DNA of 47,946 nt from Saprolegnia diclina VS20 (lineage: Eukaryota > Oomycota > Saprolegniomycetes > Saprolegniales > Saprolegniaceae), in NCBI RefSeq assembly GCF_000281045.1, contig NW_008246103.1, positions 307,842-355,787 of the forward strand, written 5' to 3'. The translations under genes were made by a program, and so were the position numbers. Shown piece by piece: positions 23,872 to 47,443 of the stretch. Under the pieces are notes generated by a model. The model saw nothing but the letters and a program-made list of their open reading frames with translations. It was not told where the DNA came from and did no database searches. How positions within the stretch are numbered: position 1 is the stretch's first letter; the number at the start of each line of letters is the position of its first letter.

Positions 23872-26844
23872 TTAGTTGGCGTCGGCCGGTGGCTCGGGCT
23901 TGGGCTCGGCGGCAGCGATCGCTTGCTCTTTGGCGATTGCTTTGGTCGACTTGACGACGTTGCTCTTGAATTTCTTCTGCGAGTCGATGCGGGCACGGAC
24001 GTCGTTCATGACCGGGTAGACATCATTGTCCATGAGCGGCAAGAGCGCGCGGCGGAAGCTGTTGTACATTTCGGGGTTGAGGCTCTCCTCCTTGAAGAGC
24101 ATCTTCTTGACCCGCTCGCGCTCTTTCGGCTCTTCAAAGCACGCGGGGCAGTTTTCGTTGATGACGGGCAGGCGCGCCGCATAGGCAAAGTCCTTGAGCG
24201 CCTCTTCGCGCACGTAGGCCAACGGGCGGATGATCTCAATGTCCTTCGTATCGTTCCAGTACTTGGCCTTCATCGTGCGCACTTGGCCATTGTACATGGC
24301 CGACATGAAGAACGACTCGGCCAGATCGTCGAGGTGCTGGCCGAGCACGAGCTTGTTGTAGCCGTTCTTGCGGCAGCACGTGTAGAGGAGCCCGCGCTTC
24401 ATGCGCGAGCAGTACGCGCAGAGCGAGTCGCCGTTCATTTCGCACATGGCGCGCTCGACAATGTTTTCCGAGAGGTAAAAGTACGGGACGTTGAGCGTCT
24501 TCATGTACTCCTTGAGCGGACTCGGGTCAAACGACGGCGTTTGCGGGTCCACGGTCGCGCACGCGAGTTCAAACCGAATGGGCGCCCGCTTTTGGAGCGT
24601 CAGCAAAATGTGGAGCAAACTCAGCGAGTCTTTGCCGCCCGAGACCCCCAAGATGAGCCGGTCGCCGTCGTTGATCATGCCCCATTGCATGAGCGCTTGG
24701 CCCACGAGGCGCATGACCTTTTGCGGCGGCGTCGGAAAGAGCGTCGTCTTGGCGACCTGGTCGGCGATCTTGCCCGTGGCCGCGATCGTCGACGCGAGAC
24801 TCTCGTGCGGGTTGGCGGCACTCGCGTTGTTGCTGCGGCGCGGGTATTTCTCCGTCTTGGGCGCGATCGGGCACACGAAGCAGGCGCCCGTCGCACAGCT
24901 CGTGGCCATTGTCGCTGGCGGTGCCGTCTCGGTCACAGCCACCAAGTGCGTGCGGGCACGGTACGCTTGCGGCTGCAGCGGGCCAAGCGGCGACGCCCGA
25001 TGCGGCAGCTCGGTGCCCGTTGCGAGCGCGCCCAGCACTTCAGATGGATAGATGAACCAGCGGAGCGATTCTTTCGACGGATCGAGCATGCTCCCGTGGC
25101 TGGCCGCCGTACCGCTGGCTTCCGAAGGCGCGAGACCCGCGAGGCGCTCGGCCTCGGCAAAGAGCGCGTCGGTCGACGGCACGATGACGCTCGGCGGCGA
25201 TGGTGTCGACGCGCCCGAGAGAAAAGGTGCTTTCGAGAGCCACTTGCGCGTCGGAAACTTTGTGAAGCGCGACTTGTGCTTCCATTCGCCCGTCTTGTGG
25301 TTGAACTTGTACTGCGGCAAGAATTTCCAGCCATGCGTGGCCACAAAAGCAATCGCTTTGAGGATGTAGTCGACGTCGTCGTCGCTCAAAATGAACGGAA
25401 AGCTCACGCGCGAAAAGCCCGGGCGGAGCACCTCGGTCTTGTCGATGAGCGCGGCTTCGAGCGCGCGCTGGTGCTCCTTGGAGACGCCGAGGAGGCGCTG
25501 GCCGTACGGGCCCGCGCACTGGCAGCCGCCGCGCGACTGGACGCCAAAGAGGTCGTTCAAAAGCGCGCACACAAAGTTGTAGTGCAAGAAGCGGTCGCCG
25601 GCCGTCAGCAGAAACGAAAAGATCGGCAAGCGCGACGGCGCCACGTCGTCGTGCCCGAGCAAGACAATGTTCTGGTACTGCGACAGCGTCGCCAACACGC
25701 GCTGGACGTGGGCGTCTTCGCGGGCTTGAATCAACGGCAGACCAATGCGATGCTTGACCTCGAGTGCCAGCCCGAGACGGATCGAGCCGAGCGTGTCGGG
25801 GGTCCCGCCTTCTTCGCGCTCGGCGCGGTTTGAGAGGTACCGGTGGTCGTCTTCGGTGACGTAAAACACAGTGCCGCCACCCGGCGCGGACGGCACGGGG
25901 TTCCCGAGAAGACGCTTCTTGAGCACGAGCACGCCGGGCGAGCCCGGGCCGCCGAGGAACTTGTGCCCCGAGAAGAAGATACCGTCCTTGTACGCAAACG
26001 GCCGCTGGTCGCCGACAAGCACGGGGTTCATGTCCATCGTCACGTACGGCGCGCAGGCCGCATAGTCCCAAAACGCAAGCGCGCCGTGCATGTGCAAGAG
26101 CACCGTGATCGCGTCGACGTCCGAGAGCTGTCCGGTCAGGTTGGACGCGGCCGAGAAGGACCCGATCTTGAGCGGCCGATCGGCGTACTCGAGCAGCTTG
26201 GCGCTAAGCACGTCCATGTCGGCATACCCGTTTGCGTTCTCGGGGATTTGGACCACGTCGGCCGCCGACTCGCGCCACGGCAACAAGTTGGAGTGGTGCT
26301 CGAACGGCCCGACAAACACGACCGGCCGCGCCTGGTCGCTGCTCAACGGCACGTGCAACCCGAGCAGCTGCACGAGCTTGTTGATCGCTGCCGTGCTGCC
26401 GCTGCCCGTGAAGAGCACGACGTCTTCGGCGCCGCGGCCCGTGATTTTGGCGTTGACGCACTGCGCGACGATCTGGCGCGTCTCGTGGCGAAAGCATGTC
26501 GACTGGAGCCCCGTGATCGACGTTGTCGTGTGCGTGTTGCCATAGAGCGGCAGCACTTCGGCTTGCATGTAGTCTTCAATGCACGCCAAGGACCGGCCAC
26601 TGGCCGTAAAGTCGGCGTACACAAGCGGCTTGGGTCCGTACGGCGTGTCGAATGGCGCCCAGTGCCCGACGAGCGACGACCGCATCGAGTGGAGGAGCGC
26701 ATCGCCCTTGAGGATGTCCGAGGCCTGTTCACTCTCGTTGGCGACGACCGTCAAGTCCTCTTCGAGCTCGTCGCAGAAGGTGCGCTCGGCAGACATGGTC
26801 AATGCTGGCGTCGGCAGAATTCGGATATTTGCCATGCCACGCAT
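23872..26844 (-). CDS. Fusion of cysteine-desulfurase-like (class V aminotransferase) and TtcA-like tRNA thiolase (990 aa)
   Basis: Intronless. Residues ~40-530 form a PLP-dependent class V fold: SGHKFLGGPGSPG carries the likely PLP lysine (K295), and SRGGCQCAGPYG carries candidate sulfur-accepting cysteines (C441, C443). Residues ~690-960 form a PP-loop ATPase of TtcA type: SGGKDS at about 735-740, followed by LQKRAPIRFEL, CAYCSR (C809, C812), LGQHLDDLAES, IRPLAYVREEAL and CPAC (C899, C902). The two CxxC pairs fit the TtcA Fe-S/zinc site. Known: bacterial TtcA makes 2-thiocytidine at tRNA position 32 with sulfur from IscS. Inferred: one chain both takes sulfur from cysteine and transfers it to tRNA. 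Start codons at 26844 and 26835 are both possible; the N terminus could be a targeting peptide. The linker (~540-690) is Ser/Ala-rich. A Ctu1-like role at U34 is a less likely alternative. Confidence 0.88.
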   Translation of the reverse strand: MRGMANIRILPTPALTMSAERTFCDELEEDLTVVANESEQASDILKGDALLHSMRSSLVGHWAPFDTPYGPKPLVYADFTASGRSLACIEDYMQAEVLPLYGNTHTTTSITGLQSTCFRHETRQIVAQCVNAKITGRGAEDVVLFTGSGSTAAINKLVQLLGLHVPLSSDQARPVVFVGPFEHHSNLLPWRESAADVVQIPENANGYADMDVLSAKLLEYADRPLKIGSFSAASNLTGQLSDVDAITVLLHMHGALAFWDYAACAPYVTMDMNPVLVGDQRPFAYKDGIFFSGHKFLGGPGSPGVLVLKKRLLGNPVPSAPGGGTVFYVTEDDHRYLSNRAEREEGGTPDTLGSIRLGLALEVKHRIGLPLIQAREDAHVQRVLATLSQYQNIVLLGHDDVAPSRLPIFSFLLTAGDRFLHYNFVCALLNDLFGVQSRGGCQCAGPYGQRLLGVSKEHQRALEAALIDKTEVLRPGFSRVSFPFILSDDDVDYILKAIAFVATHGWKFLPQYKFNHKTGEWKHKSRFTKFPTRKWLSKAPFLSGASTPSPPSVIVPSTDALFAEAERLAGLAPSEASGTAASHGSMLDPSKESLRWFIYPSEVLGALATGTELPHRASPLGPLQPQAYRARTHLVAVTETAPPATMATSCATGACFVCPIAPKTEKYPRRSNNASAANPHESLASTIAATGKIADQVAKTTLFPTPPQKVMRLVGQALMQWGMINDGDRLILGVSGGKDSLSLLHILLTLQKRAPIRFELACATVDPQTPSFDPSPLKEYMKTLNVPYFYLSENIVERAMCEMNGDSLCAYCSRMKRGLLYTCCRKNGYNKLVLGQHLDDLAESFFMSAMYNGQVRTMKAKYWNDTKDIEIIRPLAYVREEALKDFAYAARLPVINENCPACFEEPKERERVKKMLFKEESLNPEMYNSFRRALLPLMDNDVYPVMNDVRARIDSQKKFKSNVVKSTKAIAKEQAIAAAEPKPEPPADAN

Positions 26845-29874: not shown

Positions 29875-30701
29875 GGTTTTCATAAAAGCAATCGCGATAT
29901 ATGCAGGGTACGCAAAACTTGAACGAAGATGCATTCTGTATGTAGTTAGCAGCTATATCGATGAACGACAGGTTGACTGATGGCTCAACCCAAGAAGAGT
30001 TCAGTTGGCACACCGCAGCAGCTCCAAAGGAGTGCAGCTGCAGTCCACGACTCCCCTCAAGTTTCTCAAAGTCACGCCGGCATGTCCACGGCCAAGGGTC
30101 AATAACCTGTTTATTGACCCTTGCCATGGCCCAATGACGATGGATTGTCTTTGCTGGGGACGTTGCATTACCTCCTCCCACGGTCTAATGTAATGATTCG
30201 TAACGTTATTTCCAGTGAAAAGTGCAACTGCGAAGACAGAAAGCCCCTTCACCAAGAAGGTCCTCGTGGGGTTTTGCGCTAAAGTCCCACGGTCACGCCA
30301 ATAAGGACGCAAACGCGGCTCGCATTGGGTCATGACATGCGGCACATAACGCAGCACAGCCTCCGTTGTTTAGCGTGCCGTTCTACGTCACTCGTATCGC
30401 TTAAATGCAAGGGTGTCGACGATTATGCAAATTAGAGCCTTCCACCCAAGCAATCACTGCAACACTACACCAAGCGTCTATATCCAAACGACAAGACTTA
30501 ACTTAGATAGTCCCAAAACCTACAGTACTGAAATTGGATTGACAAACTTGGTGAATTTCTGGCCCACAAAAATGTACCCACGTCCACATTTGGTTCGGCC
30601 ATCCGGTGTGGATGCCACGTTGCGTGATTCTAGTCGACCCATCTGATCTCGCGCCAGTCACTTGCTCCCGTTCCCATTTTGCTTTTGCGCCGACTCCAAG
30701 C
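29875..30701. other. Intergenic region with a perfect hairpin
   Basis: No gene supported. It contains a perfect 12-bp inverted repeat with a 5-base loop at 30094-30122 (listed separately). The minus frame at 30001-30357 is open but unrecognised. The right end is the promoter of the first EI24-like gene. Confidence 0.55.
30094..30122. repeat. Perfect 12-bp inverted repeat (stem-loop)
   Basis: AAGGGTCAATAA, loop CCTGT, then TTATTGACCCTT, with no mismatch. It lies about 220 bases past the end of the ANL-like gene and about 580 bases before the EI24-like gene. It could be a protein-binding palindrome, a cruciform or the core of a small transposon remnant. Confidence 0.85.
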
Positions 30702-31430
30702 ATGAGCCACTACGCGGTTGCAGGCATCCTGTACTTTCTGACGCACCCGAGTCTCTGGCTCACGACGCTCTGCCCCATGATCATGACGATCATCGTCGGT
30801 ATCGTGTCGGTCGTTGTGCTCATCAGCGCCGGCCTCTACCCGCAAGCGTATGGCCTCGAGGAGGCCGGTCTCTCAGCGACGTGGGCATGGGTCCTCGCCA
30901 TTTTCCTCGTCGTGCTCGAGATCTTCCTCGTCGTCCTCATCTACTCGCAAACGTGCACGCCCTGCTTCATGGACGCCATCTTCGAAAAGACGCTCAAGCT
31001 CCGCGGGTTTACCGACCTCGTCGAGAACAGCGAAGCGCACTCGGGCTGCGGCCGCGCCTGCCGTGCGTGCTGCAAGGTGAGCTGCCTCTCGCAAATCTTC
31101 ATTTTGATTGTGACGTTTCCGCTCAACTTTATCCCGATCATTGGCACGATCGCGTACGTCTACCTCAACGGCCGCTTCAAGGCCTGGGAAGAGCACCTCC
31201 TGTACTTTGAAATGCGCGGCATGAAGTACGAAGACCAGAAGGACATTATTGACGCGCGCAAGGTCGAGTACGCATCGTTTGGCATGCAGTGCATGTACCT
31301 CGAGCTGATTCCGTTCTTCGGCTTTATCTTTTTGTTTACAAATACGGTCGGCGCGGCGCTTTTTGCTGCCGACATTGAAGAGAGTCTGCGAGCCCAAGAG
31401 AACGGCTACGTGCATGCTAAGGCCGTCTAA
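30702..31430 (+). CDS. EI24-domain-like multispan membrane protein, copy 1 (242 aa)
   Basis: Intronless. The ATG at 30702 is chosen over the upstream in-frame ATG at 30606 because the tandem copy starts identically (MSHYAVAGILYFLTH). Hydrophobic segments occur at roughly residues 15-45, 60-85, 125-150 and 195-225. A Cys-rich patch (SGCGRACRACCKVSC) precedes the third. The FPLNFIPIIGTIAYVYLNG segment followed by an aromatic helix (LLYFEMRGMKYEDQK) resembles the EI24 / outer-spore-wall (Lds/Rrt8) superfamily, membrane proteins of ER or lipid droplets. Biochemical role unknown. An AATAAA-type polyadenylation signal lies just past the stop, at about 31442. It is one of two tandem copies. Confidence 0.8.
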   Translation: MSHYAVAGILYFLTHPSLWLTTLCPMIMTIIVGIVSVVVLISAGLYPQAYGLEEAGLSATWAWVLAIFLVVLEIFLVVLIYSQTCTPCFMDAIFEKTLKLRGFTDLVENSEAHSGCGRACRACCKVSCLSQIFILIVTFPLNFIPIIGTIAYVYLNGRFKAWEEHLLYFEMRGMKYEDQKDIIDARKVEYASFGMQCMYLELIPFFGFIFLFTNTVGAALFAADIEESLRAQENGYVHAKAV

Positions 31431-32175
31431 TTTTCTATATGAATAAAATGTCGTCTCCATCTTCCCTTCAGTTACAACCTCCTTTTAAACCGCACGCAAG
31501 CTGGGCTCAGAGTTTGCAAGGTTGCTCCCAAAACAAAATGTTTCGAGACATTACAGAATGTAGAGCAGCCTTGCTACGGGTGTCCTTCGCATGCCTGCTC
31601 TGTACACGACAGCGAGGTCTTTTGGCTGCTCTTTTGGTACGACGCCAAGGACCAAGCTCGGATCTTGCTGCCACGCAGCTGCGCGCTGTGATTGGTGCGA
31701 TCGGGCCAATCAGCGCGCGGGTCATGCCATCGCGCACTAAAAACACCACCCTTAATTGACATGGTCCCGCGTTTGCGACGTTGCCCAGAGGCAACCTGAC
31801 ATCTTTACGACAGAGCACTTAGGAGGGAGGTCAGCGCTTTCCATCGAGATACAAGACATATCTTTAACGTGGCGGTGTTCCTGCTCCCGACGGTACGTCA
31901 CGCCCATTACCGCTGTCATTATATTCTATTATTCCGGTACGAGACCTCGTCGCACGACCAGGCACAAAAAAGCCCGCAAGCAAAGTACTTAGGGCATGCA
32001 AGAACCAGCGTATTATTTGCTTCGCAGGTCTATGCATATCCTTCGTGAGCTTGCACCAAACGCAAACATGATTCGCTCGCGCCATAAGGACTCTTCGATG
32101 CGAGTTGCGTGTAGCTAGACTATACACACACCGGATAACGTCGTTGCCAGTTTGCATTTGCCCGACCCAAGCGCG
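31431..32175. other. Intergenic region between the EI24-like duplicates
   Basis: No gene supported. At 31687-31710 there is an inverted pair of CCAAT boxes, TGATTGG...CCAATCA, with a 10-base spacer. It is a likely factor-binding site, though about 470 bases before the second copy's start. The rest appears to be promoter and spacer. Confidence 0.5.
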
Positions 32176-32913
32176 ATGAGTCACTACGCGGTCGCGGGCA
32201 TCCTGTACTTTCTGACGCACCCGAGTCTCTGGCTCACGACCTTCTGCCCGCTGCTCATGACGATCGTCATTGCGCTCGCGTCCGTCATCACGCTCTTCAG
32301 CGCTGGCCTCTACCCGCAGGCGTACGGCCTCGAGAAGGCGGGTCTGGCCGCGGGCTGGGCATGGGTTCTCGCCATCTTTCTCGTCGTGCTCGAGATCTTC
32401 CTCGTCGTCCTCATCTACTCGCAAACGTGCACGCCGTGCTTCATGGACGCCATCTTTGAAAAGACGCTCAAGCTCCGTGGCTTTACTGAGCTTGTCGAGA
32501 ACAGCGAGGCGCACTCGGGCTGCGGCCGCGCCTGCCGCGCGTGCTGCAAGGTGAGCTGCCTCTCGCAGATCTTCATTTTGATTGTGACGTTTCCGCTCAA
32601 CTTTATCCCGATCATTGGCACGATCGCGTACGTCTACCTCAACGGCCGCTTCAAGGGCTGGGAGTACCATCTCTTGTACTTTGAAATGCGCGGCATGAAG
32701 TACGAAGACCAAAAGGCGGTTGTCGACGCGCGCAAGCTCGAGTACGCGTCGTTCGGCATGCAGTGCATGTACCTTGAGCTGATTCCGTTCTTTGGCTTTA
32801 TCTTTTTGTTTACGAACACGGTCGGCGCGGCGCTTTTTGCTGCCGACATTGAAGAGAGTCTGCAAGCGGAAGACCACGGCAATGTCCACGCCTCGGCCGC
32901 CAAGGTAGTTTAA
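32176..32913 (+). CDS. EI24-domain-like multispan membrane protein, copy 2 (245 aa)
   Basis: Intronless tandem duplicate of 30702-31430 in the same orientation. The first 20 residues are nearly identical. The first two membrane helices are clearly diverged (TLCPMIMTIIVGIVSVVVL in copy 1, TFCPLLMTIVIALASVITL here). The next ~165 residues, including the Cys patch SGCGRACRACCKVSC and the FPLNFIPIIGTI segment, differ at only about seven positions. The C-terminal tails differ. Function as for copy 1. The uneven divergence suggests gene conversion of the central part or diversifying change in TM1-2. Confidence 0.8.
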   Translation: MSHYAVAGILYFLTHPSLWLTTFCPLLMTIVIALASVITLFSAGLYPQAYGLEKAGLAAGWAWVLAIFLVVLEIFLVVLIYSQTCTPCFMDAIFEKTLKLRGFTELVENSEAHSGCGRACRACCKVSCLSQIFILIVTFPLNFIPIIGTIAYVYLNGRFKGWEYHLLYFEMRGMKYEDQKAVVDARKLEYASFGMQCMYLELIPFFGFIFLFTNTVGAALFAADIEESLQAEDHGNVHASAAKVV

Positions 32914-36746: not shown

Positions 36747-39434
36747 ATGCCAAGTCGGAAGCTGCTGGAGGCTGCGGCGAGCGGCCAAACCAGTCTTGTT
36801 GCGGAGCAACTCGATAACGGCGCGGATCCCAACACTGTCGATCAGGTTCACACGCCGACCATCCATGTCGAGCTACATCCATGTCGAGCTACATACTAAT
36901 ACGCACCGAATAGTATGACAACCCGGTGCTCGCGATTGCGGCGATGCACGGTCACGTCGATGTCGTGTCGGCGCTGCTGGACGCCGGCGCGACCGCCGAT
37001 GCGTTGGATGCGGTACGACCGATATCGGTCCAGAAGAATGTCTGCATCACCACCACTACTATGTCGCGTAGATGGCTGCACCGCCGCTCTTTCGCGCCGC
37101 GCAACTAGGGCACAAGGACGTCGTGGCGCGTCTGGTTGCCGGCGGAGCCAATGTCAACTTTCAGCTGGCAGTAAACAGCTTGCATTCATTGTATCGTCAG
37201 CGTCACGATGGTCCGTAGAGCGGAACAACCGCCTTGACGGAAGCCGCTGCCGCTGGACGCAGTGAAACGGTGCAAGCGCTTTTAGCGGCCAATGCCAATG
37301 TCGCACTGCACGATCGGGTACGCGCACCGCGCACATCGATTCATACCACACAAAGCCACCGCCACATAGAATGGCACAACGTCTCTGATGGCGGCCGCTG
37401 CGAGCGGGAACGTGGACGTCGCGTCGCAGCTCTTGCGTGCCGGCATGAGCGCCCGCGACGCCAATATGGTGGGAAAGCCATACACACATCAGGAGATGAC
37501 TTTGGGTAGGAGGGTATCACGGCCATGCATTTTGCGGCCATGAGTGGCCGCGGCGCAATGATGCACGTGCTTGCGAGCGCGGGTGGCGACGTCAACGCCG
37601 CTTCATTGGTACACGTCCTAGCCATATCGGCATTTATCATCATATCGTCGCGCTAGGATGGGACGACCGTGCTACGGTGCGCAGCGACGGGCGGGCACGC
37701 TGCCGCCGTAGAGGCCCTCCTCACGTTGGGTGCCGACGCCAATGACGGCTCGGCTGTACGTACGAGGTTTCGGGTGACCAAGTGCCGTCACGTCGCGTAG
37801 ACGAACGTGCCGTCGCTTGTCGTGGCAGCCGGGGGTGGCCACCTGGAGGTTGTGGACCTGCTCCTACAAGCCGGCGCCGACATCAATGTGATCGAACGCC
37901 GGGTATGACATACCACAGCGTTGTTCGATAATGTCATGGAGTCTGTAGACGGGTATGACGGCGCTGTATATTGCAGCGTCCGGTGGCCACGAGGCCGTTG
38001 TGCGCCGACTGGTCTACGCGGGTGCGGCGCTGGACACGGCAGCCAACGTGCGTCAACGAAATAGAGTCATCCGAGGAATGCACGGACTTGCGTAGAATGG
38101 ACTGGTGCCGCTCACTGCGGCCATGGCCAACAACCGGTCGGCAATTGTCCACTTGCTTCAAGCGTTGCGTGTCGAGGTAGCACCTTCTACCTCCATGGAG
38201 GTCTCGACTGCAGTCGGTGTCCTGCTGTAGAAACGGACCTTGCTCCATGCAGCGCGCCAAGGCGACGGTGAAGGCGTCCTTGCGCTGCTAAACAAGGGCC
38301 TCAGCGCGCACGAGGTGGACGAGGTACGACGCGGTTCTGCGCTCTGCTTTGCACGGTTTACACCTTTACGACGCCTAGTATGAGAACACGCTCGTGCATC
38401 TCGCGGTCCTTGGCGGGCACCACGATCTGCTCACCGAGCTGCTTGCGCGACCGGGGATGCCAACCACGTATATCAACAAGGTTTGTAAGAATCTCTACGG
38501 AATCTTCGTCTGTCATGCTTGGCGGTGTAGTTTGGCGAATCGCCCATGATGCTCGCCATCAAGATGGCTGCCGACGACATGGTGCGCTTGCTGCATACAG
38601 CCCAAGCGACAACAGCTCCCCTTGTACGCCAGTCGTTCTTCTTGCAATCCCATGTGCTGAAAGGAAACGTAGGTGCCTCGTCGGTCGCCGCCGCCGATGG
38701 CACGGTTGGGCGCCGGTGGCTATGGCATTGTGTTCAAGGACACGCTGGACGGCGTCGAGGTGGCCGTCAAGATGCTCAAGAACCAAGGTCTCCGGGCCGA
38801 TGTTTTTCGCCGCGAAATCAACGTCATGAAAGCGTACGACCAAGTGGTTGGCGTCCGCACTCAGTCGCTGTGTAGCAATCCATCGCTGTACGTGGTGCGG
38901 CTTGTGGCGACGGCCGACGAGGACGCGGACCCGCAGCTTTTCCTCGAGTTTATGGATGGCGGCGACCTTGGGTCGCACCTTGACGCAGAGTGGAACCAAA
39001 CGCCTGTTGCCGTCGGGTACTCGCACCTCGAGGTCGCGTGGGTCGTTGCAAACGCGCTCAAGGACCTCCACGCACGAGGCATTGTGCACCGGGACATCAA
39101 GACCCAAAACATCCTTCTCTCGTCCAGCCATTACATCAAGGTCGCCGACCTCGGCATTGCCAAGCGCGTGGCGACGCACATGACGACGGGCATCGGCACT
39201 ACTGAGTGGATGGCCCCCAAAATGTTTACGTCGGGTCCAGAGACGTACGGTACCCCCGTCGACATTTATGCCTTTGGGATTCTCCTCGAAACGCTGTTTC
39301 CGGACGTCGTCGAGCAAGAGAATACCGCGTGGTACGCTGCGCTCGCCAAGTGCTGCAAGGCCACAGACCCAGCGGATCGTCCCACAGCAAGCGACCTTGT
39401 CGACGTGTTGCGCCCCGAGTTGCTCGCCAAGTAG
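36747..39434 (+). CDS. Ankyrin-repeat protein kinase, module 1 of the array (15 exons, 660 aa to the first in-frame stop)
   Basis: Exons 36747-36845, 36914-37012, 37072-37170, 37219-37317, 37370-37468, 37510-37608, 37657-37755, 37801-37902, 37949-38047, 38096-38176, 38231-38323, 38379-38480, 38531-38623, 38673-38833 and 38876-39434. Eight exons are exactly 99 bases, one 33-residue ankyrin repeat each, split by phase-0 introns. The kinase domain (residues ~430-655) has the Gly loop GAGGYG, VAVK lysine (~K454), HRDIKTQN and DLG in place of DFG, an ATE-like GTTEWMAP segment and DIYAFG. It should be active. One phase-2 intron splits the kinase after EINVMK. Inferred: a cytoplasmic receptor-like kinase scaffolded by ankyrins. 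The TAG at 39432 may instead be spliced out, joining it to 39435-44941. Confidence 0.85.
36861..36892. repeat. 16-bp tandem duplication inside the first intron of the array
   Basis: ATCCATGTCGAGCTAC occurs twice head to tail. It makes intron 1 (36846-36913) 68 bases long; without the second copy it would be 52, the usual size here. Confidence 0.9.
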
Positions 39435-42400
39435 TGTTCCAACTGCGGCGCCGCTCCGACACCCAAGTCTTTCCGTAGGCAATCCGAGCTCGTCTTGTCG
39501 CTGCGGACGTTCCGGGACGACCAGGTACGGTGCTGCCTTTGGGGACAGAACGGCAAGATGATTGTTCCGTAGTTGCGCGCCGCACCGGAAAGCAACACCT
39601 TGGTGCAGCCCCAAGTCGAGCCCGAGCCCCGAGTCGCGTTCAAGCCCCAGCCCGCCCCACGTGTTCTTCTGGTTGGAGCTCACACGCGATACAACGTGCG
39701 TCTTACCTTGTGGACCGTAGGACTTCCAGTCGCCGGACGAGAGTCTCAGTGTACGTCCACGATTCTTCATTTCTACTCGTGTCGTGATGCGAGGTCGTCT
39801 TGATAGCCCGAGCAGCACCTCCTTCGTGCCGCCTTCTTTGGTATCAAGGAGGTGGCTGCAGCGCTGTTTGACCAAGGTGTGCCGATCGAGTCGGCGAGTA
39901 GAGTACGCGTGACGCGACTGATGGATTGGTGCATGAGATGGCGTGCGTAGGTCGGCCAGACGACACTTTTGCTTGCCGTTGCCGGCCGCCAGCCCCAGAT
40001 GGTTGTGATGCTTCTGGCGCGCGGTGCCAATGCGAATGCGGCGGACGAGGTAGGCGCGCTCCGAGGAACCTTGGATGCGAACCATGCTAGATCGGGAGCG
40101 CCGTGCACCTGGCTGCCGATACGAACCAACTCGACGTCTTGAACGCGCTCATTAGCGCCGGTGCCGCTCTCGACGCGCTTGACACGGTACGCCGTTGCTG
40201 TCATCTGCACGACTCGCGTTGACAGGCGCGTATGTAGTATGGCTCGACGCCGCTGCATATGGCTGCAATGCATGGACACTTGCCTCTCGTGATCGCACTC
40301 GTGACGGCTGGTGCCGACATTAACCTCCGCGATGCGGTGCGCCAGCGCTTCGAATACGCAACCTTCTTACACAAATTTGCATGGTCTAGCGGGGGGCCAC
40401 AGCGTTGATGCGTGCTCTCTTCGGCAGCCACGTGCCGACAGCCAAACTGCTTCTCGATGCTGGCGCCAATGTCAACGACGATGCGGTACGTCCAAGTATG
40501 CCACATCGATCAGAGATGACCACAAGGTGTAGTGGGGTGAGAGTCCGCTCTTCCTGGCCTGTCGCTTGGGCCTCACATCGCTTGTGCCGCAACTTGTCGA
40601 CCTTGGCGCCGACGCGACGGCACTCTACCACGTACTCCATCTCCGTACTCGCTTGCCTCTTTGACGCGGTGAGTGTTTGTTAGGCGGGCCTGACACCGCT
40701 GCACATTGCGATTCAGGAAGGCCATGCCGAGATCGTATCGATGCTGCTCGCCTCACCGCGTGGTGTCGTCAACCAGCGCGACGCCGTACGACGCGTCTAT
40801 AGACGGCAACTCATGTCTGTGACATAGCGAGGCACGACGCTCCTGCATTTGGCCGTCGCCACCGGTCACGTCAACGTCGTTGACGTGTTTTTAAACGCGG
40901 GCTTTGACTTTGACGTGACCAATTACGTACAAAGCGTCTTCCGATGCGGCTCGTCACCGCTGCGTAGGATGGTGACACGCCGTGGGGCCTCGCCCAAAAC
41001 AGCCGCAACGCGGCACTCATCTCGCTGCTCGACGACGCTATCGAACACGTAGGAACCGACGACGCCTTGCTGCAACGACGCGCATGACAATTGTAGAAAG
41101 AGGCCCTTCTCGAGGCAGCCAAGCACGGTGCCGTGGATTGCGTACACATGCTGCTGGAGCGCCCGCTCAGCGCTAACGTCACGGACGAGGTACACGATGT
41201 CTCTTTGGCGTTTGGCACATCGTATCGTGCTTGACAGGTCGGGTGCTCGCTCGTGCATTGGGCGGTCATGACGCACAATGCGGCCCTCTTGGAGCTGCTA
41301 CTGAAGCAGCCGCATCTGGACGTCGATACGCACAACCATGTACGACACGAATGCGAGGTAGTACACGCTTACCGCATTGTCGTCGAGTAGGAAGGGAAAA
41401 CGCCACTCTCGTTGGCCATCCAGCGTGGTCACTCGGACATCGCCGACATGATCTTTCGTCACAAGCAACGTCCCGTCGACGAGGTATGTGCGTCAGCATC
41501 TATAGGACGTACACCTGCATGGACGTACTTAGATCACGCTGAACGACATCAAAGACGTTCACTCTCACCTTGGGGTCGGGGGCAACGGCAGCGTCTCCAA
41601 GGGCTCGTACCGCGGGCGATTCGTTGCTGTCAAGTGCCCCAACAACGCTGCGCATGTCCGGTCGTTCCGAACTGAAATCAACGCGATGCTCTCGTCTCTC
41701 TACCTCTTGTTGCATGTTCCGATCTCTAACAGTCGTCGTAGGTGTGCGTCACCGTACTTGGTGGAGCTTTTGGCGATCGCCGATCGCCATTCGGAGTCAC
41801 CGGCGCTCGTTCTCGAATTCATGGACGGGGGCAGTCTGCGCACGTACCTCGATAAGAAGCTGGCTGGTGCGCCAACGTCCCTCAACATGACCAAGCTCGA
41901 GGTCGCGTGGGTCGTTGCCAACGCGCTGCAGAGCTTGCACTCGATGGGCTTTGCCCACGGCGACATCAAGAGCCTCAACGTGCTCGTCGGTAGCATGGGC
42001 TACATCAAGGTCGGCGATTTGGGCGCGGCTCGCGAGCGCGCAACAATTTTGACAGCCGTGCCCGGCACACTCTACTGGACCGCGCCTGAGGCACTCCGCA
42101 CTGGTAGCTCGGGGCGCTACGGGATCGAAGCCGACGTCTATGCTTTTGGTGTGCTCCTCACGGAGCTTGACACGCTCCAATTGCCGTACTACGACCAGCC
42201 TTCCATGACTTCCATGCCTCGCGCTGCATTTGTAAACAGCGTGCTCGACGGCTCCCTCCGCCCGACGCTCCGTGACAACTGTGAGCCATGGTACCGAGCG
42301 TTGACAGAGCAGTGCCTTTTGGCGGATCCCGATGCACGTCCGACGGTCACCGAGATCCTTGGGACATTGCAGACGCACGTCTCCGCGGCGGTGGCAAGCA

Positions 42401-44941
42401 AGGATGTACGTATGTGTGCTTCTCCGGTATAGATGTGAGACATGTCTTTGCGCTAGGCATTTGACGCCTTGCACCGCGCGCTCACGAACGACATGGCCTC
42501 CGTCGTTGAAGCGCAGCTCGCTGCGGGCATGGACCCCAATGCACTCTTGCCAGTAAACATCTTTGGGCATCCGATGACGATGCCATCTCGCTACCTCTAG
42601 GGCGACGCGACGCCGCTGTATCTGGCGACGATGTGCAACGCCAAGGACTGCGTCCAAGTGCTGTTGGCGTCTGGTGCGGACGTCGACGCGCGTGTGGTTG
42701 GTTGCATCGTCGTCGAGAGCCAAGCAAATGATGCGGCGTAGGACGGTCGGACGCCGCTGCATTTGGCGGCCAGTACACAGCGGTACCCGATTGTCGATGG
42801 GCTTGTGCGCGCCGGCGCCGCCGTTGACGCTCGAACCGAGGTTTGCCAACATATTGTCTTGGCTCACGACAGCATTGATGTAGAAGGACGGAGCGACGCC
42901 GCTGCTGTACGCCGTCATCAACATGGATGCGGTTGGCGTAGTGCAGCTCCTGGATGCCGACGCCGACGTTCGTATCTCGCCCAGAGTGGTAGCAGCGCGT
43001 TCGCCGATGGAGCTGACATTTATACCGGATGGCATTAGGGACCGACGCTTCTCGAAGAAGCCGAATCGAACGAGTCGATGGCTGCTCTCCTGCCGCTCTT
43101 GAGGGCGGCGTCCGTTCGTGTACGTGACCCTCTTCGATCGCTTTGAGACAAGTGCCAACGAATCACGCTGCAGGAAGAGTTGCTTCGGACACTGGACATG
43201 GCTTGCACCAACTGCGGCAGCCGGCACGCAATAAAAGCGGCTTGTAGCGCATGCGACCATATTCCATCGACGCACGACAAGCTCGTCGTGCTGCTGCGGC
43301 GGCTACGAACGCTGCACAAGCGAGGCCTCGTCATCAACTGGGCGATGCGCTGCCGAATGTGTAACTTGCTGTTCGACTTTAACGCCGTGTGCACTGGCTG
43401 TCATGCACCAAGTCCAGCCCAGTCGGACGAGGACGACACGCTCCGGCTGCTACTCGCGCGCCTCCGAGCCGCGCTCAACAACAACGTTGCTCGCCTCGCA
43501 CAGGTGTCCCAAGCGCCCGCGCCGTTGTCTCACATGTATTCTGCAGGAGTCGGTACCAGCGCTTCCAGACGGCGTGCATGAGCTTCTTCGGGTACTCGAC
43601 ATCGGCACGGCCGAGGAGCGCCGCGTGGCAGCGATCTGCGCACAGGCCGCGAACGAGCGTGAACACGCGACGGTGGGACTTGCTCCACTCCACCCTCCGA
43701 TGCACCCAGGCTAAGACGGCAATCCTTATAGCAATTGGTGCAAGCCACACAAGAAGGTGACGCGGTTGCACTCCAGCGCCTTCTCGACGTCTCATGCCGC
43801 CCCAACTGCACGGACGAGGTGCAACGAACGACCAACCAGCTAATGGTCAAGAAGTCAACGTCATGGATAGAACGGCAACCCACTTGTCCACATTGCCGTG
43901 CAAACGCGCAACGTCGCGGTTTTGCAGGTTCTGCTTCAAGCCCCCGGCGTCGATCTGGGGGCGACCAATTCGGTATGCTCCCAGCTCCAATCTGGCGTCG
44001 CTTTCTCAAGGCGCGTAGGACGGAAAGACGGCACTGGCCGAAGCTCTCGCGCGCGGCGATATGAGCGCCATGCGCGCACTGCACGGCGCGCTCTGCGCAC
44101 CGGTGGGCACGGTACGGTGACCTTTACATAGCGTTCGGTACAGATTCTCAAACGACGCGCAGATTGCAAGCGACGAGCTGCCAACGCCGGGTGAGGCAGT
44201 CGGCCTCCGAATCGCAGACGAGCGCTACCTCTCGCCGGCGGCCAACGAGCCTGTTGACGCGATCCTCTCGTACAATATCGCATTTTGTGTGCATACTGCT
44301 TGACATCATTGTGTAGGTTTTCGTCGCCGTTCGTGGTGCCTATCTTTGCACAGACCGGGCCCGATACCGTCGCGGTCGAGCACCTGGACGAGGGAGATCT
44401 TCGGAACCTCCTCTGTCACGTGCCGCGCGAGCACCGCTTTAGTTCGTACGAGCTGGTTCAAGTCCAAGTCGCATACTGCATCGCCAACGCGCTCGCCGAT
44501 TGCCATGCGAGCGGCCTCGTGCACGGGCACCTCTCGAGCGACAACGTCTTCTTTTCCAGCCAGCATTTTATCAAGGTTGGTGTCCCCGGCACGACGCCGT
44601 ACCGAGACGGCGCCAGCGCAATGCTGCGCTGGACGGCACCCGAGGTCCTCCGCGGGGACGCTCGCACAACGGCGTCCGACATGTACGCGCTTGGCGTGAT
44701 TTTGACCGAGCTCGACACGCTCGAGCTGCCGTATGGCAACGACGACGTCGACGAAGCCGTGCTACGGGAGCTGGTACTCAACGGTTTCCGCCCGCCTCTC
44801 TCGGAGGAGTGCGAAGAAAACTACTCTAACATCGTCGCCCGTTGCGTGGCGCCAGAGCCGAGCGATCGGATGACTACAGCCGAGCTCGCAGCGATTCTGC
44901 AGCGAATTCTGGATGCTGCCGTCGTTCGTTATGGTATCTAA
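39435..44941 (+). CDS. Ankyrin-kinase array, modules 2 and 3: kinase, twin zinc ribbons, pseudokinase (about 29 exons, ~1380 aa; start unresolved)
   Basis: Exons (all phases close): 39435-39524, 39573-39671, 39721-39750, 39807-39902, 39951-40049, 40091-40186, 40238-40336, 40390-40485, 40533-40631, 40684-40785, 40828-40926, 40968-41048, 41097-41189, 41238-41339, 41391-41483, 41533-41693, 41742-42405, 42457-42552, 42601-42696, 42742-42840, 42884-42985, 43039-43119, 43174-43503, 43547-43672, 43732-43818, 43871-43972, 44019-44111, 44163-44269, 44317-44941. Most encode one ankyrin repeat. Kinase 2 (41533-42405) keeps VAVK and DLG but has HGDIK instead of HRD. Exon 43174-43503 has two CX2CX9CX2C ribbons. 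Kinase 3 (44163-44941) lacks the Gly loop; AVK reads GLR, HRD reads HGH and DFG reads GVPG, so it is a pseudokinase. No ATG opens the first exons, so they may continue module 1. Alternatively kinase 2 ends at 42432. Confidence 0.75.
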
Positions 44942-46277: not shown

Positions 46278-46690
46278 TAGATAAATTTTCATGCAGCGGC
46301 CGTTGTCTTCAGCGATATATATTAGAGTCGAAGGCTCGTTCGAATGGCAGATAAGCTCCGACCCGGGTTCAGCTTCGTCGTATGTCTCGGAACGCCAATG
46401 CCGCTCATTCTACGTAGTCCGACCGATCGCATCACTGCCAACAGTTCAAGGCAATTACCCCAAGCTGTGGGAGTATCGAACAAACGGACGATCTTCCACC
46501 CGTTTCAACGTCGACGAGGTATATATTTTATAGTCCGAGACGGCTGAAAGATAGCACACCTATGCACTGTGGTGTGTGCGCTTGTCTCTACCACTTGTCT
46601 GTTGAAACTTGGAAGCTTACGACGCTATACGTGATAGCTCAGTGGTCGCCCCGTCATCCCCAATCAGTGGCTAATTTCCATTGCGCTGTC

Positions 46691-47443
46691 ATGGGCACAT
46701 TTTTCTCTGGGCCGTCGTACAAGTACAAAGTCAATGTCGACGGCAACGGCAAACTTTTGCTCGCGCGGGGCCACACCAAACTGCTCAAGAAATACGCACC
46801 CAACTTTACCGCCACGCGCGCACCGACGCCCAAGGACGAAGAGCTCATGACGCGGTCGTGGGAAGTCGTTATTGGCGCGAAATTACGCGCCGAGCTCGAG
46901 CGGCGAAAGCTCCAAGTCAACTCGGACCCGGACGCGCCGCCCGAGTCATCGGCCGTCGTTCAGTTCTACGACGTCTTCTTCACCAACTTGTACGCAATCG
47001 ACCCGGCAACGCGACCGGTCTTTCGTAATTCGATGCACGTACAAAGCAAGGCGTTGGTCAACATTGTCGGTGCGATCCGCCACATTTTGCACTCGGCCGA
47101 TGCCACAAATAACATTGCAGCCCTGGCACTGCGCCATATTCAGTATGGCGTCAAGCTCGAGTTCTTTGACAGCCTCGGCCTCGCCATGATTGAGACGCTG
47201 CGGTCGCTCGGCGGCAGTTTCTGGAGCGACGACGTTGGCGACGCGTGGCGCACGGTCATCGCATACATCATCTGCCTCCTCGTCCCACCGTACATGGAAG
47301 GCGCCCGCAGCAAGGAGCACAGACACTTGACGATGGCCACGTCGCGGTCTCGCACCAGCGCCTCCCGCGTCGCAGTCGGCGACACGCATCCGTCGTTCAT
47401 TGCATCGACAACACACCCCTCGACGACCGAAGTTGTCAGTTAG
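46691..47443 (+). CDS. Globin-domain protein with myristoylation-type N terminus (250 aa)
   Basis: Intronless. The frame is open further upstream, but the ATG at 46691 gives MGTFFSGPS, matching the M-G-x-x-x-S N-myristoylation pattern, so I choose it. The globin fold covers residues ~60-205. It has VVQFYDVFFTNLYAIDPATR (helices B-C with the conserved Phe) and E helix MHVQSKALVNIVGAIRHIL with Gln118 at the probable distal position. The F helix follows as ALRHIQYGV with proximal His149, then G-H helices with W-S-D-D-V-G-D-A-W-R. Gln at the distal site is seen in several bacterial and protist globins. The last 45 residues are Ser/Thr-rich and disordered. Role (oxygen sensing, NO detoxification or lipid-associated redox) is not determinable here. 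Membrane anchoring is an inference. Confidence 0.8.
   Translation: MGTFFSGPSYKYKVNVDGNGKLLLARGHTKLLKKYAPNFTATRAPTPKDEELMTRSWEVVIGAKLRAELERRKLQVNSDPDAPPESSAVVQFYDVFFTNLYAIDPATRPVFRNSMHVQSKALVNIVGAIRHILHSADATNNIAALALRHIQYGVKLEFFDSLGLAMIETLRSLGGSFWSDDVGDAWRTVIAYIICLLVPPYMEGARSKEHRHLTMATSRSRTSASRVAVGDTHPSFIASTTHPSTTEVVS

What the first reader, a model, noticed from the sequence alone, without database searches (positions are those of the whole stretch)
36747..44941. 8.2-kb array of ~44 mini-exons in which one exon equals one ankyrin repeat
At least fourteen exons are exactly 99 bases (33 residues) and most others are 93, 96 or 102. Every intron between repeats is phase 0 and 41-68 bases long. Such strict exon-repeat register would let repeats be added, lost or alternatively skipped without breaking the frame. 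That is an attractive design for a diversifying recognition protein.
Basis: partly seen in the sequence, partly recalled or inferred. Interest (0 to 1): 0.85.

Follow-up and report, generated by a model that had tools for sequence, protein, structure and literature searches.

The report
Triple ankyrin-kinase gene, one exon per repeat
A water-mould gene already in public databases builds one long protein with three kinase-type domains and 33 ankyrin repeats, each repeat coded by its own tiny exon; the layout is real, but in relatives it has stayed largely fixed rather than serving as an obvious device for rapid diversification.

Summary
The exon array is real. An ankyrin-blind splice model found 35 of 44 exons exactly; curation gave 44 exons (36747-44941), 2026 residues, no internal stop, letter for letter the public "TKL protein kinase [Saprolegnia diclina VS20]". 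It belongs to a family with the same overall order in seven of seven long paralogs aligned. Arrays 1 and 2 are largely frozen: repeats match best by position in 1098 of 1440 comparisons (209 of 380 for this gene; chance about 1 in 30), and 26 of 26 comparable repeats pair one-to-one between S. diclina C35f and S. parasitica P0004. Changes exist: this gene lacks one array-2 repeat, and repeats around the pseudokinase differ between clades. Recognition-type positions show no clear excess of change (17 repeats). Modules and whole genes duplicate. Best reading: an ankyrin-TKL signalling scaffold with an old exon-repeat register. Exon skipping is untested. The register is a known phenomenon; I did not find this triple architecture described in my searches.

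The parts
36747..44941 (+). whole coding gene, 44 exons, 2026 aa; public TKL protein kinase of Saprolegnia diclina VS20 (P0001)
36747..38623 (+). ankyrin array 1, exons 1-13 (99,99,99,99,99,99,99,102,99,81,93,102,93 nt)
38673..39430 (+). kinase domain 1, exons 14-15 with a phase-2 intron 38834-38875; G-loop, VAVK, HRD and DLG present
39431..39478 (+). 48-nt GT-AG intron after kinase 1; starts GTAGTG, so reads TAG if retained; a phase-2 intron lies at the same place in 7 of 8 paralogs and, also in the eighth (C90a)
39479..39750 (+). linker exons 16-18 (46, 99, 30 nt)
39807..41483 (+). ankyrin array 2, exons 19-30; 12 repeats, one fewer than in the paralogs compared
41533..42405 (+). kinase domain 2, exons 31-32 (intron 41694-41741); HGD in place of HRD
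42457..43119 (+). ankyrin array 3, exons 33-37 (five repeats, last one short)
43174..43503 (+). exon 38, double CxxC/CxxC zinc-ribbon-like domain; no Pfam family over its cut-off
43547..43672 (+). linker exon 39
43732..44111 (+). ankyrin exons 40-42 (87, 102, 93 nt; exon 42 degenerate); exons 40-41 have no counterpart in the C35a-type paralogs
44163..44941 (+). C-terminal pseudokinase domain 3, exons 43-44 (phase-2 intron 44270-44316); HGH for HRD, GVPG for DFG, no recognisable G-loop or its lysine

Best explanation
One gene of the oomycete Saprolegnia diclina that encodes a single signalling scaffold: ankyrin array 1 - TKL kinase 1 - linker - ankyrin array 2 - TKL kinase 2 - ankyrin array 3 - zinc-ribbon-like domain - short ankyrin array - pseudokinase. 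Shown: gene structure, domains, family, conservation of exon register and of repeat number in arrays 1 and 2 (one repeat apart). Inferred: the ankyrin solenoids hold partner or substrate proteins; kinases 1 and 2 signal; the pseudokinase and ribbon regulate or dock, as in other kinase-pseudokinase pairs. The exon-repeat register is an old inherited structure. New genes arose by multiplying an ankyrin-plus-kinase module inside one gene and then by duplicating the whole 8-kb gene, with a few whole-repeat and intron changes. Splicing is expected to act across the roughly 49-nt introns, so the common error should be intron retention; 41 of 43 introns would then stop or shift the frame.
For: P0001 equals the curated splice product. 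Pfam kinase and ankyrin matches. Seven of seven long paralogs aligned keep the overall order, as far as assembly gaps let one see; array 1 has 13 exons in 6 of 6 genes where the whole array was read this way. The lengths 93 and 102 at the third- and second-last repeats before kinase 1 (8 of 8 genes) and kinase 2 (10 of 10) are constant. Kinase tree of 34 rows: K1 and K3 each one clade at 100/100, so the internal multiplication predates the gene duplications. Catalytic Asp missing in 10 of 10 K3 sequences used (motifs). One-to-one repeats in S. parasitica orthologs.
Against: No RNA or protein data were available and no function has been tested. K2 is not recovered as one clade: this gene's K2 sits apart. 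Repeats near the pseudokinase differ between clades, and public models P0002 and P0010 carry a further ankyrin stretch after the pseudokinase. Several models are cut by assembly gaps or differ from the public ones. S. parasitica models P0121 and P0122 end just after kinase 1, so a shorter product cannot be excluded there. In this gene kinase 2 has HGD, so its activity is uncertain.
Confidence: 0.75

Rival explanations
1. A diversifying recognition protein: single-repeat exons are gained, lost or skipped to change binding specificity.
For: All ankyrin exons are symmetric in phase 0; one array-2 repeat is missing here; exons 40-41 are absent from six relatives and a further ankyrin stretch follows the pseudokinase in P0002 and P0010; two relatives carry a fused 216-nt two-repeat exon; large clustered family; some repeats of the C35f pair are faster than the kinase.
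Against: Repeat order and exon lengths of arrays 1 and 2 largely fixed in paralogs and in two ortholog comparisons; recognition-type positions 0.27 against 0.21 substituted, matched by 2037 of 10000 random position sets (17 repeats); no long near-identical copies within the array among the 20 repeat families shown.
Confidence: 0.1
2. Two or three separate genes: kinase 1 ends at the TAG 39432-39434 and a second gene follows.
For: In-frame TAG right after the kinase fold; S. parasitica models P0121 and P0122 end shortly after kinase 1; the stretch after the TAG reads CSNCG, like a zinc motif.
Against: The TAG lies in a 48-nt GT-AG intron whose place recurs in 7 of 8 paralogs, none of which reads CSNCG there; linker exons 16-18 stay open in paralogs, with similar lengths in most; the public model runs through.
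Confidence: 0.1
3. The repeat exons are under selection for skipping as a regulatory switch (e.g. a shorter scaffold at some life stage), without sequence diversification.
For: Strict symmetry and conserved boundaries across paralogs.
Against: Register can simply be inherited; short introns favour intron definition, where skipping is rare (general knowledge). Not tested.
Confidence: 0.07

Closest known systems
Oomycete-specific TKL kinases with ankyrin repeats, e.g. Phytophthora infestans PITG_06288 (Judelson and Ah-Fong 2010, PMC3019232)
   Same: TKL kinase with a long ankyrin array N-terminal to it (15 repeats, per the passage seen)
   Different: Here three ankyrin-kinase modules plus a ribbon domain and a pseudokinase in one chain; membership in their Subfamily 1 was not tested
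S. diclina and S. parasitica TKL protein kinases P0002-P0008, P0010, P0013, P0004, P0121, P0122
   Same: Same family and, where DNA was read, similar domain order and exon pattern
   Different: Most share about 37-41% with this protein; P0121 and P0122 are the close S. parasitica relatives (82% and 79%)
Achlya hypogyna multi-kinase protein P0009
   Same: Three ankyrin-kinase units in one chain with the same ribbon motif
   Different: Its kinases cluster with each other (100/100), so its triplication looks independent; the ribbon follows each kinase
Exon-per-repeat genes in general (Schaper et al. 2014 on human tandem repeats, PMC3995336, citing Street 2006, which I did not see)
   Same: Exons that span whole repeat units; repeat number often conserved
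   Different: This case has 33 single-repeat exons with introns of about 49 nt and three kinase-type domains

Membership tests
Ankyrin repeat protein | Matches to Pfam ankyrin models over cut-off | tested here: met
   Ank_2 2.7e-55, 1.9e-53 and 4.8e-26 in the three pieces scanned
Eukaryotic protein kinase, domain 1 | Kinase match with G-loop, Lys, HRD Asp and DFG Asp | tested here: met
   Pkinase 1.3e-35; DLG in place of DFG, Asp kept
Eukaryotic protein kinase, domain 2 | Kinase match with G-loop, Lys, HRD Asp and DFG Asp | tested here: inconclusive
   Pkinase 1.9e-37; HGD and DLG, Asp residues kept, Arg of HRD missing
Active kinase, domain 3 | Catalytic Asp of HRD and of DFG | tested here: not met
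   HGH and GVPG; still matches PK_Tyr_Ser-Thr 6.8e-20
TKL group | Placement with TKL kinases in a tree with reference groups | not tested
   Only the public name 'TKL protein kinase'; no reference kinome tree was built
Oomycete TKL Subfamily 1 | Clustering with P. infestans Subfamily 1 kinases | not tested
   Only passages of PMC3019232 seen
Exon-repeat register genes | Exon boundaries at one position of the repeat, same phase | tested here: met
   33 ankyrin exons flanked by phase-0 introns
Diversifying repeat recognition protein | Variable repeat number or excess change at binding positions | tested here: inconclusive
   Arrays 1 and 2 near-fixed and no excess at 17 repeats, but repeats near the pseudokinase vary between clades; no isolates compared
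Known zinc ribbon family | Pfam match over cut-off | tested here: not met
   Best Zn_ribbon_6 14.6 bits against 25; single-sequence model too poor, pLDDT 57

The most novel reading that the evidence does not exclude
A one-chain signalling relay: two kinases and a conserved C-terminal pseudokinase held along three ankyrin solenoids, whose single-repeat exons are kept in register because stage-specific skipping tunes the length of the scaffold. The triple design arose at least twice (Saprolegnia and Achlya).
Probability: 0.08. Interest if true: 0.65.

Novelty: new variant of a known kind. Interest (0 to 1): 0.36.

Why it matters
It gives a case where a layout ideal for exon shuffling has mostly not been used for fast diversification: exon register and repeat order of the two long arrays survive while sequence falls to about 38-57% identity, and duplication acts on modules and whole genes. 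It also points to a little-described class of multi-kinase ankyrin scaffolds in saprolegnialean oomycetes, with a conserved pseudokinase and an unnamed Cys-rich domain.

Tried and rejected
The first self-trained splice model with a weak intron penalty over-split exons; a higher penalty helped (33 and 35 of 44 exons exact at the two settings). With splice weights taken from the curated gene, 36 of 44 exons came out exactly with one length penalty and 33, 37, 39 and 41 of 44 at four settings of another. The idea that CSNCG after kinase 1 is a coding zinc motif was dropped because the paralog introns there do not encode it. Single-sequence AlphaFold of exon 38 was of low confidence and not used. 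A joint alignment of exon 38 with full-length proteins was not informative. Paper searches for a 99-bp exon per ankyrin repeat (no paper) and for ankyrin/one exon/TKL/oomycete (one paper) found no earlier description of this architecture; nor did the listings or the passages seen. The apparent identity of C35b and C90a over their first 0.75 kb was N against N, and the exon/intron substitution counts include N positions, so I do not use them.
Full report
Observation. A splice model using codon usage and GT/AG signals, started from generic splice seeds and with no ankyrin information, gave 35 of the final 44 exons exactly, 27 of 33 ankyrin exons. Curation, in which I used the repeat pattern at a few doubtful boundaries, gave 44 exons, 6081 nt and 2026 residues with only the terminal stop. 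A protein search returned P0001, "TKL protein kinase [Saprolegnia diclina VS20]", 2026 aa, 100% identity and coverage, on a contig of 523846 bases, the length of contig C36 that holds the window. P0001 is letter for letter my model. The gene is therefore already annotated and the organism is S. diclina. I do not know whether that annotation used RNA data.

Anatomy. 33 of 44 exons are ankyrin repeats (exons 1-13, 19-30, 33-37, 40-42); 13 of these are 99 nt and 28 of 33 are 93-102 nt. The other 11 encode two kinase domains, a pseudokinase, a Cys-rich domain and linkers. 39 of 43 introns are phase 0 and 39 of 43 end in TAG; mean length is 49.2 nt. The exon boundary falls one residue before the usual Gly of the xGxTPLH motif. 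Three of the four phase-2 introns sit at the same place in the three kinase domains, evidence of internal module duplication.

Chance. The same procedure, with splice weights from this gene, gave 28 internal phase-0 exons of 93-102 nt in the target, 0 in 15 and 1 in 2 of 17 other partly overlapping stretches and strands, and 0 in each of 10 shuffles. This control favours the target; the independent public model is the stronger proof.

Family. Searching the 54.15-Mb genome with kinase 1 gave 151 matches (434 candidates in the first look, 150 scored; all kinds of kinases), the best of them clustered on contigs C35, C90, C47, C44 and C93. The Cys-rich exon gave 19 matches at E up to 0.1. I aligned the seven loci that showed kinase 1, kinase 2 and ribbon in line; all seven show the same overall order, but C35b and C90a start in assembly gaps. 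Seven further loci were partial or different: C35f and C35d are cut by gaps, and C44m1, C44m2, C93a, C93b and C15m have other arrangements around a single matched kinase. C35c has an in-frame stop in its second repeat in my alignment, a disturbed array 3 and a shorter public model.

Is the array fluid? Array 1 has 13 exons in 6 of 6 genes where it was read whole under the models used (this gene, C35a, C35e, C35f, C47m, C90b). Exon lengths by position are near constant: before kinase 1 the third- and second-last are 93 and 102 in 8 of 8 genes, before kinase 2 in 10 of 10; the neighbouring positions vary in a few (81 in 6, 72 in 1, and 57 in C47m; 93 in 6, and 105, 69, 75 once each). In 1098 of 1440 comparisons among eight genes a repeat's best match in another gene was at the same position, about 1 in 30 expected by chance. 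For pairs with this gene it is 209 of 380, partly because its array 2 is shifted by the missing repeat. 6 of its 30 repeats scored higher against another repeat of the same gene than against the same position elsewhere. That test left out exons outside 60-130 nt, exons 40-42, and genes C90a, C35d and C44m1.

Changes do occur. This gene has 12 repeats in array 2 where the relatives compared have 13; the alignment gap is about one repeat long. C35b and C90a carry a fused 216-nt exon with two repeats, an exception to the register. Between ribbon and pseudokinase this gene, C35b, C90a and, by length, C15m have ankyrin exons like 40-41, while C35a, C35c, C35d, C35e, C90b and C47m have a longer linker instead. 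Public models P0002 and P0010 (C35b, C90a) go on with a further ankyrin stretch after the pseudokinase.

Across species. S. parasitica P0121 (648 aa) pairs with exons 3-13 of this gene, 11 of 11 whole repeats, with one 3-residue gap; per-exon identity is 67-97%, against 81-83% in kinase 1. P0122 starts within exon 5 and pairs 8 of 8 whole repeats with small gaps. S. diclina C35f and S. parasitica P0004 pair over 1175 residues with 3 residues of gap and 26 of 26 repeats (the alignment was guided by P0004, and the C35f locus ends in a gap within kinase 2); repeat identity ranges from 48 to 94%, kinase 1 87-90%, so a few repeats there are clearly faster. Recognition-type positions (set recalled from DARPin design) changed at 0.27 against 0.21 elsewhere; 2037 of 10000 random sets were as high (17 gap-free 33-residue repeats, others dropped).

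How it grows. In a 34-row kinase tree K1 and K3 are single clades (100/100); K2 is not (one clade in 7% of bootstrap trees, this gene's K2 apart). The three kinases of Achlya P0009 cluster together (100/100), so its triple design looks independent. The Cys-rich double motif follows each kinase in P0009. Thus mainly modules and whole genes duplicate. C35b and C90a are 98-100% alike from about 2.2 to 6 kb and 52-70% per window after about 6.2 kb; recombination or an assembly duplicate beside gaps could explain this.

Mechanism. Kinase 1 keeps G-loop, VAVK, HRD and DLG. Kinase 2 has HGD here and HRD in the eight relatives with a K2 in the tree. Domain 3 lacks the catalytic Asp in 10 of 10 K3 sequences, a conserved pseudokinase. 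I infer a scaffold in which ankyrin solenoids hold partners and the pseudokinase regulates. Of 43 introns, 20 have a length divisible by three and 18 of these carry an in-frame stop if retained; the other 23 shift the frame. Jiang et al. 2013 (PMC3681718, passages) report a very large S. parasitica kinome with 298 TKL-type members, and ankyrin proteins among families both expanded and raised in germinating cysts; this fits a signalling role but does not concern this gene.

The stop after kinase 1. TAG 39432-39434 lies within a 48-nt intron. A phase-2 intron of 42-54 nt lies at the same place in 7 of 8 paralogs, and none of the 8 reads CSNCG if it is retained; C90a, guided there by its public model, differs, but has the intron. 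S. parasitica P0121 is annotated with extra residues there, as if the intron were read through, and P0122 without them.

Known background. Schaper et al. 2014 (PMC3995336, passages) state that exons frequently span whole repeat units and that rapid change of repeat number is rare in human protein repeats. Judelson and Ah-Fong 2010 (PMC3019232, passages) describe oomycete TKL kinases, one with 15 ankyrin repeats. So the phenomenon is known; this architecture is a variant.

Noticed in passing
window 43174-43503 and P0009, P0014, P0045, P0243: A double CxxC/CxxC ribbon-like domain recurs in ankyrin-kinase proteins of Saprolegnia, Achlya and Thraustotheca (motif scan); in this gene no Pfam family passes its cut-off there.
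   Followed up: partly
G000 contigs C35 (about 150-157 kb) and C90 (about 71-78 kb): Two paralogs are nearly identical over about 4 kb, then drop to 52-70% identity from within or just after the kinase 2 exon; both abut assembly gaps.
   Followed up: partly
P0009 (Achlya hypogyna): Three ankyrin-kinase-ribbon units in one protein that seem to have multiplied independently of Saprolegnia.
   Followed up: partly
P0002 and P0010 C-termini: A further ankyrin stretch and a Cys-containing tail follow the pseudokinase in these two paralogs but not in this gene.
   Followed up: no
window 23872-26844 (-): Open frame joining a class V aminotransferase domain and a PP-loop ATPase domain, an apparent fusion.
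   Followed up: no
window 30606-31430 and 32152-32913 (+): Two similar neighbouring open frames; the second matches EI24/CysZ, the first was not scanned.
   Followed up: no
window 46562-47443 (+): Open frame with a globin domain just downstream of the gene.
   Followed up: no
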